Below the pieces are notes generated by a model, which saw nothing but the letters and a program-made list of their open reading frames with translations, was not told the origin of the DNA and did not search any database. Both the position numbers and the translations under genes were made by a program. From NCBI GenBank assembly GCA_024276815.1, contig JAJRWM010000107.1, positions 1-5,543 on the forward strand: a stretch of DNA of 5,543 bases. Direction: 5' to 3'. Positions 515 to 5,530 of this stretch are shown here, one piece after another; the first letter of the stretch is position 1; each line of letters begins with the position of its first letter. This DNA comes from a bacterium (GTDB taxonomy: Bacteria; JACRDZ01; JAJRWM01).

Positions 515-543
515 TTGACTTTCCAAGTACTTGAATATAACAT
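515..543 (+). promoter_or_regulatory. Candidate proximal promoter of the TIR gene
   Basis: TTGACT (515-520) is a good -35 box. Possible -10 boxes are TATAAC at 536-541 (five of six matches but a 15-base spacer) or TAACAT at 538-543 (four of six, 17-base spacer). TATACT at 548-553 is another -10-like hexamer without a matching -35. The region is AT-rich and 60-90 bases upstream of the TIR start, a suitable place for a dedicated promoter. If the cassette boundary at 588/589 is right, this promoter lies outside the cassette. Confidence 0.4.
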
Positions 544-587
544 TTGATATACTCCCCAGTGAGCGGAGATTTTGAGTAGAAAAATAA

Positions 588-594
588 GTTAGCT
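588..594 (+). other. Predicted 5' integron cassette junction (GTTAGCT)
   Basis: GTTAGCT resembles the integron R' core site (GTTRRRY, here one mismatch), with strand exchange expected between G588 and T589. It sits 21 bases before the TIR start codon, the compact spacing usual for integron cassettes. It also complements the R'' arm of the attC after the TIR gene: the reverse complement of TGCTAAC (1633-1639) is GTTAGCA, identical at six of seven positions. This is better than the current downstream junction GTTAGAG (1699-1705), which shares five. That is what is expected if 589-1699 once circularised as a cassette. Confidence 0.55.
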
Positions 595-597
595 GGA

Positions 598-606
598 AAG
601 GAGGAG
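598..606 (+). promoter_or_regulatory. Shine-Dalgarno of the TIR gene
   Basis: AAGGAGGAG lies immediately before ATG 609 with GGAGG at 600-604, four bases from the start. It is a near-perfect anti-16S complement, and it supports ATG 609 as the start. It is inside the predicted cassette, so the gene carries its own translation signal. Confidence 0.8.
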
Positions 607-608
607 CT

Positions 609-1628
609 ATGAAGGTATTTTTAAGTTGGTCTGGAGAACAAAGCCATAAAGTCGCTGTTGTTTTTCGAGACTGGTTTCCTTCTGTAATCCAGTCATTGGT
701 GCCTTATGTGTCATCAGAAGATATTGACAAAGGAGCTCGTTGGAGTACGGATATAGCCGCAGAGCTTGAAGATTCAACATTCGGCATTCTTTGTGTAACA
801 AAAGATAACCTTAATGCTCCGTGGCTGATCTTTGAAGCTGGGGCGCTTTCAAAGACTATGGATAAGGCCTTTGTAAGCCCTTTCTTATTTAATATTAAGC
901 GTTCAGAAGTCGATGGGCCAATTATCCAATTTCAGTCAACTATATTTGAGAAAGAAGATATAAGGAAGCTTCTGAAAACATTAAATAAAGCATGTGGAGA
1001 GGACAAGCTAATTGATGAGCGATTAGATAAGGCTTTTGAAGCTTGGTATCCAACTATGGAGGGGGAGCTGAAGAAAATAACACCATCTAGCAGTGGGGAT
1101 GAAGCGGGGGAAAAGAAGCCAATAACTCAGGGAAATGAAATTCTTGAGGAGATATTGGAGCTAGCAAGGTTAAACCAAAAATTGCTTCGTAATCCTGACG
1201 GAAAATATATAAAAGAAATTGAACAAATGAGCATGATGCTAATGGACTTACGGGAAAGGCTGTCAAAGCGTGAGGATGATTATATTAGACGTAAACGCCG
1301 AAAACTCCATCCTATGTTCATTGATGAATTGCTACACATGTCCCAACGTTTTGAGAAAAACTACACTGGATTTCAAATTGCTCTGAGCTTCTTTAGGAAT
1401 GACTATCCGTGGCTTTATGATGCAGGAATAGATTTAGTTAGGGTGTTGCGCAGTAAAACTGGAAAGATGGAAAAGCAAGAGTCCATTGAAACATTTATGG
1501 AGTTAGTAGAGTTTACCTTCGAACATCCAATGATATTGGAGATGATGGGTGGTATGAACAAGGAACTCCACATGATGAGGAGAGAATTACGCCATTTTTT
1601 AATGAGGGCTAGAGAAGAGTTAAGGTAA
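609..1628 (+). CDS. TIR-domain protein with C-terminal coiled coil and helical domain (putative NADase, anti-phage)
   Basis: The 339-residue protein has an N-terminal bacterial TIR domain at about residues 1-155. It opens with KVFLSWSGEQS, the first TIR strand and loop, followed by helix VAVVFRDWFP, the VSSEDIDKGARW region (34-45), FGILCVT (58-64) and W72-L-I-F-E76, a WxxxE motif leading into FEAGALSK. Glu76 is the expected catalytic residue. TIR proteins of this kind cleave NAD+ or make cyclic-ADP-ribose signals, usually causing death or arrest of phage-infected cells; that role is inferred from the family. Residues about 156-175 are a polar linker, 178-230 predict as a charged coiled coil, and 230-339 form an unrecognised helical domain beginning RRKLHPMFIDELL. 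There is no signal peptide or membrane segment, so it should be cytoplasmic. It is followed by an attC, so it is probably a cassette gene. No ThsA, CBASS cyclase or other partner is adjacent, suggesting a single-gene system. Confidence 0.88.
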   Translation: MKVFLSWSGEQSHKVAVVFRDWFPSVIQSLVPYVSSEDIDKGARWSTDIAAELEDSTFGILCVTKDNLNAPWLIFEAGALSKTMDKAFVSPFLFNIKRSEVDGPIIQFQSTIFEKEDIRKLLKTLNKACGEDKLIDERLDKAFEAWYPTMEGELKKITPSSSGDEAGEKKPITQGNEILEEILELARLNQKLLRNPDGKYIKEIEQMSMMLMDLRERLSKREDDYIRRKRRKLHPMFIDELLHMSQRFEKNYTGFQIALSFFRNDYPWLYDAGIDLVRVLRSKTGKMEKQESIETFMELVEFTFEHPMILEMMGGMNKELHMMRRELRHFLMRAREELR

Positions 1629-1632
1629 AAAC

Positions 1633-1705
1633 TGCTAACAAGGCGCTCCACCTGACCGCTATTCCGCTGGCGCTCCATAGCGGCAGGTGAGCTTGGTTGT
1701 TAGAG
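1633..1705 (+). other. Integron attC recombination site (59-base element)
   Basis: The site folds as a canonical attC. CTAACAA (1635-1641) pairs with TTGTTAG (1697-1703). An unpaired spacer GGC/TTGG follows. Then GCTC (1645-1648) pairs with GAGC (1689-1692), ACCTG (1650-1654) with CAGGT (1684-1688), and CCGCTA (1656-1661) with TAGCGG (1678-1683). C1649 and A1655 are left unpaired; on the recombining bottom strand they are G and T, the extrahelical bases IntI uses to recognise strand and orientation. The terminal loop is 16 bases (1662-1677). R'' is TGCTAAC (1633-1639) and R' is GTTAGAG (1699-1705), with the cut expected after G1699. Total length is about 73 bases, within the normal range. Orientation places the upstream TIR gene in its cassette. 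Confidence 0.88.
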
Positions 1706-1746: not shown

Positions 1747-2475
1747 ATGAAAAAGAAACTTTTGGCAGAATTGGTAATGGGATTGTTTGTGCTTGGTATG
1801 GCAGTTACGGTAAATGCAGGCCCTATAACAATTACAAATGATTTGGAGTCTGTTGGTTCCGAGGACACAGTTGTAAACTCTTTAGTTTTTGATAGTAATG
1901 TTCAAGTTAATATAATTACTTCAGACAGTAGTGACCCTGTAATTGGTTTATATGGAAATGGTGCAAGCACACCTCATTTTTCTAGTCCTTCAGGCTCAAC
2001 AAATATTATAAACACACCCGCTAACCCAGCTAATGTATCAGGTAATTATTTTCTCGGCGTAACATCACACTTTGCCCCTGCCCAACCTATTGAATTTTAC
2101 TTTAGTACAGAAATATCTTCTTTTGGCTTAACTACTATCGATTTACTTGAAACCAGCTTCAATCCAAATGACAGCATGTACATGAATTTTACTGCTTACG
2201 ATTTGAATAACAATGTTGTTGACATAATGAGTTTAACCGGAGCCCAAGGGAATTCCGGTATAGACATAGACTGGCTTGTCATCTCAAATAGTCAAAACAT
2301 TAGTAGAGCAACACTAGAGGGTAATGTAGGATCTGGAACTGGTTTTGGTATAGATGATTTTGTCGTAACATATGACCCTGCCCCTACCCCCGTCCCCGAA
2401 CCGGCCAGTGTGCTCCTTTTAGGCACCAGCATAATCGGCTTGGCGGGAATAAGAATCAAAAGGAAAAAGAAATAG
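1747..2475 (+). CDS. Secreted PEP-CTERM sorting-domain protein
   Basis: I chose ATG 1747 because AAGGAGG stands just upstream and the protein then begins with a clean signal peptide: MKKK, a hydrophobic core LVMGLFVLGMAVTV, and a likely cleavage after VNA (about residue 25). An in-frame ATG at 1687 would add 20 unlikely residues and start inside the attC. The mature 242-codon product is rich in Ser, Thr, Asn and Gly, looks like a beta-rich surface or matrix protein, and has no enzymatic motif I recognise. The C-terminus is a textbook PEP-CTERM signal: Pro-rich TPVPEP at about 214-219, hydrophobic ASVLLLGTSIIGLAGI, and the basic tail RIKRKKK. Such proteins are exported, cleaved by exosortase and usually linked to exopolysaccharide or biofilm; no exosortase is in the window. 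The gene begins 44 bases after the attC, but no second attC follows it, so whether it belongs to the integron array is unclear. Its host function is unknown. Confidence 0.85.
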   Translation: MKKKLLAELVMGLFVLGMAVTVNAGPITITNDLESVGSEDTVVNSLVFDSNVQVNIITSDSSDPVIGLYGNGASTPHFSSPSGSTNIINTPANPANVSGNYFLGVTSHFAPAQPIEFYFSTEISSFGLTTIDLLETSFNPNDSMYMNFTAYDLNNNVVDIMSLTGAQGNSGIDIDWLVISNSQNISRATLEGNVGSGTGFGIDDFVVTYDPAPTPVPEPASVLLLGTSIIGLAGIRIKRKKK

Positions 2476-2519: not shown

Positions 2520-2720
2520 TCAACCGGCGGAATCGCCGAACTCAGGTTCACAGGTTCCGAATCCTTCCTGAAGGAGCCGACGAGTATTGAGCATTCCCTG
2601 CCGGGAAATACGCATTAAATCCATTTCCCAAATCCTGCGAGGCAGTTTGCGGTTCGAAAATTCGGGTGCTTTTTCATACCACAGGACGTGTTTCCATAAC
2701 TCCCAAACTGGCCGGTCGGC
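2520..2720 (-). pseudogene. Possible ORF remnant of unknown function
   Basis: On the minus strand one frame is open for 66 codons between stop codons, ending at TGA 2522-2520. It reads like protein, with charged and aromatic residues alternating: PVWELWKHVLWYEKAPEF, then RKLPRRIWEMDLMRISR and NTRRLLQEGFG. No start codon or ribosome site is found at its upstream end; the first in-frame ATG leaves only 34 codons. It could be the tail of a decayed gene or a chance open frame, and I do not recognise the family. The rest of 2512-2906 contains only short dyads, for example GGACGA (2755-2760) with TCGTCC, and nothing else I can support. Confidence 0.25.
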
Positions 2721-2906
2721 TTAATCAGTTGATATAAAAGGGATTGTCCCACCGGACGAGCTTTGGACTTCGTCCCAAGAATTCAGAGAATCCGGGGGCA
2801 AACAGAGAATTAAGGCTAAGAAAAGAGGGAGAATCAGGCGGGTGGAGAACGGGTCTGGAAAGATGTGAAACGGGCGCAAACCCTTTGAAAACAAGGGGAA
2901 ATAGAA

Positions 2907-2984
2907 AACCCGTCGTCCCGGAGGCCGCTAAGCGGCTCTTGTTTCGTCGCTTCGCGACACCCGGAGAGACGGGTTGTCTTTTTT
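2907..2984. terminator. Branched bidirectional terminator downstream of ssrA
   Basis: An outer stem AACCCGTC (2907-2914) / GACGGGTT (2968-2975) encloses two further hairpins, GCCGC/GCGGC near 2924-2936 and GTCGC/GCGAC near 2946-2957, and an inner CCGG pairing, giving a cruciform-like fold. On the minus strand it starts 13 bases after the tmRNA CCA end and is followed by TTTTCTATTT, making it the probable ssrA terminator. On the plus strand it is followed by T6 (2979-2984), so it could also stop transcription approaching ssrA antisense from the left. Confidence 0.65.
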
Positions 2985-2988
2985 CAAA

Positions 2989-3340
2989 TGGTGGAGGTGG
3001 CGGGGATCGAACCCGCGTCCGAAAATACATCGGTAAAGGGCGGCTACATGCTTAGTCTGATATTAAATTTCCTCAGCGGCACCCCTCAGACAGGTTGACG
3101 CCAAGTAGCTTACAGTGAAAGTCCCCACACCGGCTGCCAGCGCCCGGTATGAGCGAAGCCCGATAAATGGCGCCTCACCGGTTAACTCGGGCCTATAACC
3201 AAGAGACGTTAGCTGTTCTTAGGCAGCTAAAGCGTAATCGTATTGATTAGCGTTTATACGTTTCCGCCTGTTTTACGAGGCAGCGGTCCTCGGCATGCTC
3301 CCTATACTCCAGTTATTCCCGTCGAATCCAATTCACCCCC
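2989..3340 (-). ncRNA. ssrA: Transfer-messenger RNA (tmRNA), one-piece
   Basis: The minus strand shows both conserved ends of tmRNA. The 5' end begins GGGGGTGAATTGGATTCGAC at 3340. The 3' end has the T-arm GCGGG-TTCGATC-CCCGC followed by CACCTCC, discriminator A and an encoded CCA ending at 2989. GGGGGTG and CACCTCC form the seven-pair acceptor stem with one G-U pair. The 352-base length is typical. tmRNA, alanylated and bound to SmpB, rescues ribosomes stalled on broken mRNAs and adds a degradation tag. Several GC-rich pairings between tag and 3' end fit the expected pseudoknots. It is the unpermuted form, with no intervening split. smpB is not in the window. Confidence 0.96.
3219..3251 (-). 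other. tmRNA tag reading frame (ANQYDYALAA)
   Basis: Inside ssrA the resume codon GCT (3251-3249) starts the frame Ala-Asn-Gln-Tyr-Asp-Tyr-Ala-Leu-Ala-Ala followed by TAA (3221-3219). The Ala-Asn start and the YALAA end match the usual proteolysis tag recognised by ClpXP and related proteases. The bases just before the resume codon, TATAAAC, resemble the conserved UA-rich signal that positions SmpB and the ribosome. Confidence 0.9.
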
Positions 3341-3341
3341 G

Positions 3342-3506
3342 TTATTTGGTCCGGAATCCTCGACCGGCTACTGACTTGTAACCGCCGATCTTCTTGCCAT
3401 GACGCCCTTTCAACTTGTTGACAGAGGAATTACGCACAACACTGGAATAACCGTGCTCTTTTTGCTTTTCTTCGGTTAAATACGCGTGTTTATTGTTTTT
3501 ATTCAT
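3342..3506 (-). CDS. Small basic hypothetical protein directly upstream of ssrA
   Basis: The start is ATG 3506-3504, supported by AGGAGGG (3519-3513) six bases upstream; an in-frame ATG at 3524 overlaps no ribosome site and is less likely. The 54-residue product begins MNKNNKHAYLTEEKQKEHG and ends with Lys, Arg and Gly-rich sequence (KGRHGKKIGGYK, GRGFRTK). It is strongly basic with no membrane segment or signal peptide, so it may bind nucleic acid, but I do not recognise the family. Its TAA (3344-3342) is a single base from the mature tmRNA 5' end. There is therefore no room for a separate ssrA promoter outside this frame, which suggests a shared transcript trimmed by RNase P. Either the protein is real and coupled to ssrA, or the frame is a structured leader that happens to be open; the good ribosome site favours the first. 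Confidence 0.55.
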   Translation of the reverse strand: MNKNNKHAYLTEEKQKEHGYSSVVRNSSVNKLKGRHGKKIGGYKSVAGRGFRTK

Positions 3507-3554
3507 ACCGAACCCTCCTATCAAAACAACAGATTTAGAAAACGTCCATATAAT

Positions 3555-3585
3555 ATTACTACCATAAGATACCTTCCCTTGTCAA
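3555..3585 (-). promoter_or_regulatory. Candidate promoter of the small ORF and ssrA
   Basis: On the minus strand a perfect TTGACA -35 lies at 3585-3580. The best -10-like hexamer is AGTAAT (3560-3555), four of six matches with a long 19-base spacer; the whole stretch downstream is AT-rich. The predicted start would lie about 40-50 bases before ATG 3506, giving a short leader. No comparable promoter is visible just upstream of the tmRNA itself. Confidence 0.4.
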
Positions 3586-3643
3586 CAAATTTACAACATG
3601 GAGTGTAACTCGTCAGTTATTGGGGGAGGAGTTAAGGTGATGG

Positions 3644-3796
3644 GTGGGAGCAGTCGATAAGCAGGACATAAGTTACTGCGAGGTTTGTTTCGAAAAGCAA
3701 CAGAAAATTGATGTCCTCTACGAAGAAGTAATCAGGCTGCAAGCAAAGCTGAACCTCCAGGAGCGCAAGGCACCTCGCAGGGGACATTGTATTTGA
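3644..3796 (+). pseudogene. Truncated IS66-like transposase N-terminus
   Basis: A 50-residue frame starting GTG 3644 reads VGAVDKQDISYCEVCFEK, then a heptad-like helix KIDVLYEEVIRLQAKLNLQERKA, and stops at TGA 3794. The CxxCFEKQ.KID..EEV.RL.AKL..QERKA pattern is what I recall for the N-terminus of IS66-family transposases, where the helix precedes a conserved segment rich in Gly and Ser. Here that segment is replaced by PRRGHCI and a stop, so roughly nine tenths of a transposase is missing and no terminal repeats are visible. A purine-rich ribosome-like site (GGGGGAGGAG, 3622-3631) lies upstream. It is probably a relic of an insertion; a short functional protein is less likely. Confidence 0.5.
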
Positions 3797-3827
3797 ACGA
3801 AACGTGCTCTGAAAATTTGATCGCCTG

Positions 3828-3836
3828 TGTTATGAT
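3828..3836 (+). promoter_or_regulatory. Extended -10 promoter for the glycosyltransferase gene
   Basis: TGT followed by TATGAT (3831-3836) is an extended -10 element, with the hexamer one base from consensus. No good -35 lies at the normal spacing, as is usual for extended -10 promoters. Transcription would start near 3843, leaving a leader of about 20 bases before the start codon, so the gene probably has its own promoter independent of the IS remnant. Confidence 0.45.
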
Positions 3837-3865
3837 TAACAACATCCAGATTAAATCGGGTGTTT

Positions 3866-5530
3866 ATGAACTGGCCAGCAAAGAAAATATTAATAACTAA
3901 ATTAATAACTCCAGCCGTGATCTCGCTGTTTGCCATGGTGATACTCTTTACCAGGCTTGATCGGATCGCCCTGTATCCGTGGGATGAAGCGCGGTTCGCT
4001 GAAATCACCTACGAACTGAGCGAGAACCACGACTGGCTGAACCTTACCTTTAATCAGCGCTCTTACCTGAGAAAACCGCCGCTTTATTTCTGGCTGAGCG
4101 GCGCGACCTTTAACCTGCTGGGAAGCCAGGAGTTCGCCGGTCGTTTCTGGACAACCCTTTTGGGTTTACTCACGGTAATTACGGTTTATTACATCGGAAC
4201 CAACATGTTCGACTCGCTAAGCGGGGTTTTCGCCGCCCTGATTCTCCTGGCGACGCCCTTGTTTTTCAAGGAAGCCCGAACCGCCCAGACCGATATCCCC
4301 CTGACCTTTTTGCTTACCTGTTCGCTGTATTGTTTCTACCTGAGCCGGGAAAAATCAAAATACCTGGTTCCCGGTCTGTTTTTTGTCGGGCTGGCCATTA
4401 TGACCAAGAGCGCGGCCGGATTAATACCGCTGGGAATCGCCGGCGTATACCTGGTAACGACCGGCAATTTCGCCGTTCTCAAAAATCGCTACCTGCCGCC
4501 GGGACTGATACTGCTTCTCGCTATTGTTATCCCCTGGCACGCCTACCAGCTCAGAGCGTATCCAGGCCAATTCTTCGAGAGTTATTTTTCCCACCAGGTT
4601 TACGACCGCATGGTCCGACCCCTGGAAAGCCATTCGGGCGGATTGTTTTATTACCTGTCAATACTGTTCAGCCGGGTCATGCCCTGGAGCTTGGTGTTTG
4701 TCCTGGGACTAAAAACCTTTTGGCGGGAGGAAAGATATCAAAAGCAGGTCAGGTATCTACTTACCTGGTTTCTTACCATTTTAATCGCCTTCAGTTTGTT
4801 CGGCACCAAGAGCGGGACTTACATTATACCTCTCTTACCGCCGCTGGCGCTTCTCTGCGGCTACTATTTCCGTACCCTGACAACAAGCAATTCACAGAAG
4901 GTTATGCGCACGTTTAATTGGCTCAATATTGTTTTGGGGCTGGCCTCGCTGGCGATTATGTTGATCTTGACAGCCCATTATTTTCTTCCCGGTTTGGCAA
5001 TCTTTCCCCTTAAATTCAGGCTCGCCTATCTGAACGCCGGCCGTTTGATCGCGTTCTGGCTTCTCTTATTGGTTTCCTCTTTTTTCTACCCGGCCCGAAC
5101 CAAACAGACCAAACGGAGGCTGGCTGTTTTTCTGCTGCTTTTTATCGTCAGCGTAGCGGCTGTTAACCTCGAAGGCGAGAACCTGGAGATCATCCGGGAC
5201 CCCTACCGGGATGTCAGGGCGGTGGCTTTGGCGAGCAAGGCTCTGACGCCGCCGGGTAAAACTATCTACTCCAGGAAGATAACGGCCGAGACCCTGTCTT
5301 TTTACTCTCGTCACCGCATTGAAGAGCTTGACCGAAACGAGGAGATCGAAAACATCACCGCTAATGGCGATTATTATTTCATTTTGCCGGCTGAGCAATA
5401 CCAGGGCCAAAGGAGCCTTTTCCCTTCATCGGAAGTAATTTACCAGGAGGGCGGGATTGTCTTGATCAAAGACGTTGACTCAGAAGATTCCAGGTCTGTC
5501 GTCAGCGAAAGAGCTTCAGCCCCTGATTAA
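3866..5530 (+). CDS. ArnT/PMT-like polytopic membrane glycosyltransferase (GT83-type)
   Basis: The 554-residue product begins with a hydrophobic segment (about 8-29), then a first extracytoplasmic loop with the acidic pair D40-E41 in YPWDEARFAEI, the expected catalytic acid of this superfamily. Next come DW (56-57), KPPLYFW (70-76), GRFWTTLLGLLT, and EARTAQTD (136-143), all conserved in ArnT-type enzymes. About eleven to twelve hydrophobic segments reach to residue 433, followed by a soluble C-terminal domain of about 120 residues, the usual plan for the family. These enzymes move a sugar from a polyprenyl-phosphate donor to an acceptor such as lipid A, a glycan or a protein on the outer face of the inner membrane; donor and acceptor here cannot be told. 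ATG 3866 is preferred; GTG 3860 is an alternative two codons earlier, and neither has a strong ribosome site. It stands alone in the window. No lipid A-modifying arn genes are adjacent, so arnT is not assigned. Confidence 0.88.
   Translation: MNWPAKKILITKLITPAVISLFAMVILFTRLDRIALYPWDEARFAEITYELSENHDWLNLTFNQRSYLRKPPLYFWLSGATFNLLGSQEFAGRFWTTLLGLLTVITVYYIGTNMFDSLSGVFAALILLATPLFFKEARTAQTDIPLTFLLTCSLYCFYLSREKSKYLVPGLFFVGLAIMTKSAAGLIPLGIAGVYLVTTGNFAVLKNRYLPPGLILLLAIVIPWHAYQLRAYPGQFFESYFSHQVYDRMVRPLESHSGGLFYYLSILFSRVMPWSLVFVLGLKTFWREERYQKQVRYLLTWFLTILIAFSLFGTKSGTYIIPLLPPLALLCGYYFRTLTTSNSQKVMRTFNWLNIVLGLASLAIMLILTAHYFLPGLAIFPLKFRLAYLNAGRLIAFWLLLLVSSFFYPARTKQTKRRLAVFLLLFIVSVAAVNLEGENLEIIRDPYRDVRAVALASKALTPPGKTIYSRKITAETLSFYSRHRIEELDRNEEIENITANGDYYFILPAEQYQGQRSLFPSSEVIYQEGGIVLIKDVDSEDSRSVVSERASAPD

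What the first reader, a model, noticed from the sequence alone, without database searches (positions are those of the whole stretch)
589..1699. TIR-domain defence candidate carried as a lone integron gene cassette
Seen: one ORF with its own ribosome site, ended by an attC seven bases after the stop, and a 5' GTTAGC junction that complements the attC left arm. Known: TIR NADases are widespread anti-phage effectors, and integron cassettes can carry defence genes. Inferred: this gene moved as a cassette and may work alone, since no ThsA, cyclase or other partner is nearby. A single-gene TIR system mobilised by integrons would be worth describing.
Basis: partly seen in the sequence, partly recalled or inferred. 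Interest (0 to 1): 0.82.

Follow-up and report, generated by a model that had tools for sequence, protein, structure and literature searches.

The report
Phage-defence-like TIR gene in integron cassette
A bacterial gene of a kind used to shut down phage-infected cells has the exact layout of a mobile integron gene cassette here, and relatives of it sit in cassettes in several unrelated bacterial groups, so integrons appear to spread it; integron-borne phage defence is already known, so this is a new example with some unusual details.

Summary
Segment 589-1699 is a complete gene cassette: one TIR-domain ORF (609-1628, 339 aa), an attC at 1634-1704 (64.2 bits, E 2.3e-15 with a covariance model built from other attC sites), and a 5' GTTAGC at 588 complementary to the attC arm GCTAAC. 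Four homologues show the same layout: Sulfurimonas, Chlorobaculum, a Comamonadaceae cassette array, and another genome of that family. Neither result that would have refuted the finding was seen. (1) The genome holds a second lone cassette on another contig; both cassettes follow the same ~60-bp attI-like sequence, found nowhere else in this draft genome, in which no integron integrase was found. (2) The TIR belongs to the family of the phage P2-AC1 TIR, which was tested only as part of a three-gene locus with two membrane proteins; those partners were not found here. 'Works alone' is plausible but unproven. Most likely it is an NADase whose C-terminal helical part senses infection, in the manner of SpbK; this is inferred from fold, the conserved E76 and kinship. 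Integron-borne defence and single-gene TIR defence are both published, so novelty is moderate.

The parts
532..592 (+). attI-like recombination site, ending at the GTTAG crossover core; also present once on contig C230 of the same genome (L093:2579-2644)
   Evidence: Local alignment score 28.5 against a best of 16.5 in 500 shuffles. A profile of the two copies finds only these two in the genome (52.6 and 60.6 bits). The end AAAATAAGTTAG resembles the published attI1 core AAACAAAGTTRRRY (PMC12901181).
588..593 (+). GTTAGC: 5' crossover core, G|TTAGC; the cassette begins at 589
   Evidence: Exact reverse complement of GCTAAC at 1634-1639.
589..1699 (+). integron gene cassette (1111 bp)
   Evidence: Both crossover cores plus attC.
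609..1628 (+). TIR-domain protein, 339 aa: TIR 1-155 with the candidate catalytic Glu76 (PWLIFEAGAL), coiled coil about 175-230, C-terminal helical bundle 235-338; no membrane helix
   Evidence: PADLOC PDLC03016 (TIR-TM) 380 bits, Pfam TIR_2 E 1e-4, below Pfam's own cut-off; AlphaFold2 mean pLDDT 81.8; fold matches SPARTA TIR Z 13.0, SpbK Z 12.3, SARM1 Z 11.8; E76 invariant in 36 homologues; hydropathy.
1634..1704 (+). attC site: R'' GCTAAC 1634-1639, R' GTTAGA 1699-1704
   Evidence: Covariance model 64.2 bits, E 2.3e-15; bottom-strand fold z -4.06; best candidate in a separate scan.
1747..2475 (+). PEP-CTERM protein gene, first gene after the cassette; no attC follows it, so it is either a resident gene or the remnant of a further cassette
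   Evidence: Pfam PEP-CTERM 22.4 bits; no attC-like site after it; GC 0.39, as low as the TIR gene.

Best explanation
The segment is an integron gene cassette that was inserted next to an attI-like site in this chromosome. It encodes a cytosolic TIR enzyme that most likely protects against phages. The C-terminal coiled coil and helical bundle would sense an infection product and bring TIR domains together, and the assembled TIR domains would then cut NAD+ using Glu76 and stop growth of the infected cell. The cassette structure is shown by sequence. The TIR fold, the conserved Glu and the kinship to a tested defence TIR are shown by computation. The NADase activity, the trigger and the ability to work without partner proteins are inferred. 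No integron integrase was found in this draft genome, so the cassette was probably placed by an integrase that is now lost, missing from the assembly, or acted from another element.
For: Cassette: attC 64.2 bits, E 2.3e-15; matching 5' core; attI-like site shared with the genome's other lone cassette. Recurrent mobility: the cassette signature in Sulfurimonas (10-nt match), Chlorobaculum (7 nt), Comamonadaceae (12 nt, array) and genome G092 (8 nt): 5 of 57 TIR loci against 4 of 786 control ORFs, Fisher p 1.2e-4. On the tree the cassette label needs 4 changes, with G092 far from the window, so capture probably happened more than once. Function: the strongest defence-library match is the TIR of the AC1 system; relatives lie in prophage and phage contigs, one beside a Hachiman-like helicase and an Mrr-type nuclease; TIR fold closest to the NADase TIRs of SPARTA, SpbK and SARM1; Glu76 invariant and aligned with the WxxxE glutamate of a plant TIR. 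Partner-free: no neighbouring gene is shared among the window, L007 and G092 loci.
Against: No activity was measured. The nearest tested relative was tested only together with its 1TM and 2TM neighbours (PMC9122126). The C-terminal halves diverge strongly between family members, so sensing may differ. Expression is uncertain: promoter-like sites in the region are about as frequent as in shuffles. The genome is a 91% complete draft in 246 contigs and the window is a whole 5.5-kb contig, so a partner or an integrase could be missing. The attI-like reading rests on two copies.
Confidence: 0.66

Rival explanations
1. The TIR protein makes a nucleotide signal from NAD+ that activates a separate effector encoded elsewhere, as in Thoeris or as proposed for the AC1 three-gene system; the cassette carries only the sensor half.
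For: The family matches the TIR of the AC1 2TM-1TM-TIR locus over nearly full length (393 bits for AC1, 380 for the window), and the authors proposed signalling to the membrane proteins (PMC9122126).
Against: No 1TM or 2TM relative was found in this genome or in five others carrying related TIR genes, and only 3 of the TIR loci examined, all AC1-like, have them. The two genome searches had no positive control, so they are weak.
Confidence: 0.2
2. The cassette is an unexpressed or decaying passenger with no present function.
For: No integrase in the draft genome, weak promoter evidence, one base of R' (GTTAGA) no longer pairs with GCTAAC.
Against: The ORF is intact with a ribosome site, the candidate catalytic Glu is kept, the attC scores higher than those of the other TIR cassettes, and the first position after an attI is normally the best expressed (review PMC12409362).
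Confidence: 0.1
3. The TIR protein acts on a eukaryotic host as a secreted immune modulator, the reading given to cassette TIR proteins in plant microbiomes.
For: TIR proteins were a main 'host immune regulation' group among predicted secreted effectors in plant-associated integrons (PMC11089894).
Against: Homologues sit in phage and prophage contigs and beside defence genes, and carriers include Sulfurimonas and Chlorobaculum, which are not typical host-associated bacteria (own knowledge). Secretion signals were not tested for.
Confidence: 0.04
4. On the landing site only (independent of the protein's role): the shared 5' sequence is not an attI but a secondary (attG-type) target or part of a repeat.
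For: Only two copies are known, with no integrase gene beside either.
Against: Both copies end exactly at the crossover core, both are occupied by the only two attC cassettes found in the genome, and the end resembles the attI1 core.
Confidence: 0.3

Closest known systems
2TM-1TM-TIR system of phage P2-AC1 (PADLOC TIR-TM, 1TM-TIR, 2TM-TIR; PMC9122126)
   Same: Its TIR component is the closest tested relative: 51% identity over 196 aa, same profile over nearly full length.
   Different: Here there is a single gene in an integron cassette; both membrane partners are absent nearby and not found in the genome; the C-terminal part is different.
SpbK of Bacillus subtilis ICEBs1 (PMC12847820, PMC8880864)
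   Same: Single gene; TIR fold (Z 12.3); a helical, sensor-like domain joined to a TIR.
   Different: SpbK has its helical domain at the N-terminus and the TIR at the C-terminus; here the order is reversed. SpbK rides on an integrative and conjugative element, this on an integron cassette.
Anti-phage integron cassettes (Darracq 2025, Kieffer 2025, Getz 2025, as summarised in PMC12409362 and cited in PMC12444791)
   Same: Small defence genes moved by attC sites.
   Different: Those were tested for activity and lie in Vibrio or mobile integrons; this one is untested and stands alone in a genome where no integrase was found. Whether they include this TIR family could not be checked, as those papers were not read.
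TIR cassettes in plant-microbiome integrons (PMC11089894)
   Same: TIR-domain proteins in integron cassettes.
   Different: Read there as effectors acting on plants; sequence relation to this family not tested.

Membership tests
Integron gene cassette | attC site downstream of the ORF, foldable on the bottom strand | tested here: met
   64.2 bits, E 2.3e-15; fold z -4.06
Integron gene cassette | 5' GTTRRR-type crossover core complementary to R'' | tested here: met
   GTTAGC 588-593 and GCTAAC 1634-1639; rare in controls
Integron gene cassette | Same gene family found with different attC sites in other arrays | tested here: met
   L009 array and L032/G092 with full attC; L006 and L007 with partial or decayed sites
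Complete integron | intI gene together with attI | tested here: not met
   No integron integrase over cut-off in the 91% complete genome; best hit is XerC/XerD. An attI-like site is present
2TM-1TM-TIR (AC1) system | TIR component | tested here: met
   PDLC03016, 380 bits
2TM-1TM-TIR (AC1) system | 1TM and 2TM partner genes | tested here: inconclusive
   Absent next to the gene and none found in the draft genome, but the searches had no positive control
Thoeris | ThsB-type TIR with a ThsA-type effector | tested here: inconclusive
   No ThsB model matched at E up to 1 and no effector gene in the 5.5-kb contig; the rest of the genome was not searched for ThsA
TIR NADase | TIR fold with the catalytic glutamate | tested here: met
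   Fold matches; E76 invariant in 36 sequences
TIR NADase | NAD+ hydrolysis | not testable with these tools
   needs an enzyme assay
Anti-phage defence system | protection against phage | not testable with these tools
   needs plaque assays

The most novel reading that the evidence does not exclude
A branch of the AC1-type TIR family has shed its membrane partners and become a self-sufficient one-gene defence unit that integrons have captured repeatedly and carried between phyla; in this genome orphan attI-like sites, without any integrase gene nearby, serve as landing places for single cassettes.
Probability: 0.33. Interest if true: 0.66.

Novelty: new variant of a known kind. Interest (0 to 1): 0.52.

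Why it matters
It links a tested defence family to integron transfer across Campylobacterota, Chlorobiota, Pseudomonadota and the window's own phylum, and gives a compact gene to test whether an AC1-type TIR can protect without its partners. It also suggests that TIR cassettes in environmental integrons, so far read as effectors against plants, may be phage defence. The paired attI-like sites offer a concrete case for asking how cassettes land in genomes without an integrase.

Tried and rejected
Second copy of the attC by BLAST in the genome: none; the covariance model later found a different, weaker one on C230. Viral contigs with the single protein: nothing; with an alignment, 45 relatives, none with the GTTRR-type cassette signature. 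L038 and L087 passed a looser core test but not the GTTRR form, so they were not counted. L043, the closest viral-contig relative, has a model hit for attC 3.3 kb from its TIR gene (26.9 bits), not next to it, so it was not counted. A first attC model without structure was replaced by one with the R and L stems set by hand. The PDB sequence search gave only a weak match to a plant TIR. PADLOC's name 'TIR-TM' suggested a membrane protein; hydropathy shows no membrane helix, and the name goes with a system that has TM partners. An empty site could not be shown: only three genomes of the same phylum were held and none closer. The C-terminal part was not searched for its fold on its own, so its fold is untested. 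Literature searches for TIR plus attC gave one relevant paper.

Full report
Observation. The window is a whole contig (C28, 5543 bp) of a 2.39-Mb draft genome, 91% complete in 246 contigs. ORF 609-1628 encodes 339 aa. At 1634-1704 lies an attC: it folds on the bottom strand better than all 200 shuffles, was the best candidate of my own scan, and scores 64.2 bits (E 2.3e-15) with a covariance model made from 13 attC sites of a Klebsiella class 1 integron, a Comamonadaceae array and two plasmids, none of them the window's site. E-values of that model are rough because its calibration is short. The 5' core GTTAGC at 588 is the reverse complement of GCTAAC after the stop.

Other genomes. Five TIR loci show the same pair of cores: the window; Sulfurimonas MAG L006 (75% identical; GTTAGCAATA, 10 nt); Chlorobaculum L007 (59%; GTTAGCC, with the rest of the attC not recognisable); Comamonadaceae L009 (12 nt; attC 1012-1121 behind it, what looks like the tail of another attC before it, and further cassettes behind); and G092/L032 (GTTAGATT, attC 42.5 bits). 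In 57 TIR loci this makes 5, against 4 of 786 control ORFs, two of which are themselves cassettes of L009 (Fisher p 1.2e-4). The sample is not random: L006-L009 were found by similarity to the window, and the core definition was refined after seeing the first loci. L008 (57% identical) and the phage AC1 TIR lack the pattern. In L006 the TIR's own R' reads ATTAGC instead of GTTAGC, but the next gene ends in an attC-like site (26.1 bits). The L006 genome carries an integron integrase split between two frames. On a tree of the first 180 residues the window, L006, L007 and L008 form a supported clade (100/98), L009 lies near, and L032 elsewhere; the cassette label needs four changes. So the gene has entered cassettes more than once, or has left them several times.

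Where it landed. The covariance model finds a second site in this genome, on contig C230 (31.6 bits, E 3.5e-4), behind a DUF6920/DUF6544 gene with a 5' GTTAGGC. Upstream of the cores, the two loci share about 60 bp (score 28.5 against at most 16.5 in 500 shuffles), ending in AAGTTAG at the crossover. A profile of the two finds only these two places in the genome and nothing convincing in three genomes of the same phylum. The end resembles the minimal attI1 core AAACAAAGTTRRRY (PMC12901181). I read it as an attI-like site present twice, each with one cassette. No integron integrase was found: the best hit is a XerC/XerD protein, and the genes around both sites show none. This is inference from two copies in a draft genome.

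The protein. Pfam sees a weak TIR_2, PADLOC a strong match to TIR-TM, 380 bits. That profile corresponds to the TIR of the AC1 locus: the phage AC1 TIR scores 393 bits, and its two neighbours match 1TM-TIR and 2TM-TIR. The AC1 locus was cloned as three genes and protects E. coli (PMC9122126). AlphaFold2 gives a TIR at 1-155, a coiled coil and a C-terminal helical bundle (pLDDT 81.8, pTM 0.50, so the arrangement of the parts is uncertain). The TIR part matches SPARTA (Z 13.0), SpbK (12.3) and SARM1 (11.8). Glu76 in PWLIFEAGAL is invariant in 36 homologues and aligns with the WxxxE glutamate of a plant TIR. There is no membrane helix.

Does it act alone? The 1TM and 2TM families were not found in this genome or in five others with related TIR genes; as no control genome rang either, this is weak. 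Only AC1-like loci have those neighbours. No gene next to the TIR is shared among the cassette loci I looked at. This fits a one-gene unit but does not prove it.

Mechanism, with the basis of each step. Movement as a cassette: shown by sequence anatomy and by the other arrays. TIR fold and active-site glutamate: shown by computation. Cutting of NAD+: inferred from the fold family. Activation by an infection product through the C-terminal helical part: inferred by analogy with SpbK, whose helical domain binds a phage portal protein (PMC12847820). Growth arrest of the infected cell: inferred.

Known or new. Anti-phage genes in integron cassettes are established (PMC12409362), TIR proteins in cassettes were noted in plant microbiomes (PMC11089894), and single-gene TIR NADase defence is known in SpbK. 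What is added is the specific family, its repeated cassette carriage across distant bacteria, the absence of the AC1 partners, and the twin attI-like sites.

Noticed in passing
L089 (Thiolapillus brandeum plasmid pTBH13, NZ_AP012275.1) 2590-3989: A cassette with two genes, a ThsB-type TIR (PF08937, 65.8 bits) and a caspase (PF00656, 70.7 bits), with an attC behind it similar to the window's: a TIR-caspase pair, resembling type IV Thoeris, moved as one integron cassette.
   Followed up: partly
L093 (own genome, contig C230) 2579-3589: Second lone cassette of this genome: a DUF6920/DUF6544 gene between GTTAGGC and an attC whose R' reads GTTCGC, behind the same attI-like sequence.
   Followed up: partly
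L043 818-1588 and 1822-4837: A viral contig where a close TIR relative lies beside a Hachiman-like HamB helicase (190.7 bits) and an Mrr-type nuclease, with a phage-type integrase downstream.
   Followed up: partly
L006 1266-2129 and L043 223-681: A protein family without Pfam or PADLOC match stands behind the TIR cassette in Sulfurimonas, ends there in an attC-like site, and by eye recurs upstream of the TIR in L043: perhaps another mobile cassette gene.
   Followed up: no
L031 60-1024 (Sulfurimonas MAG, contig C48): Integron integrase split between two reading frames; whether it is a true pseudogene or an assembly error is open.
   Followed up: no
L088 5984-7063 (Geoalkalibacter subterraneus plasmid pGSUB1): A DNA methyltransferase gene followed at once by an attC-like site 84.6% identical to the window's, suggesting a restriction-modification cassette.
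   Followed up: no
window 2989-3340: tmRNA gene on the minus strand (197.3 bits), an ordinary chromosomal gene near the cassette.
   Followed up: no
window 1747-2475: PEP-CTERM protein gene with GC 0.39 and GC3 0.32, like the TIR gene and unlike the glycosyltransferase gene at 3860-5530 (GC3 0.63): perhaps also acquired.
   Followed up: no
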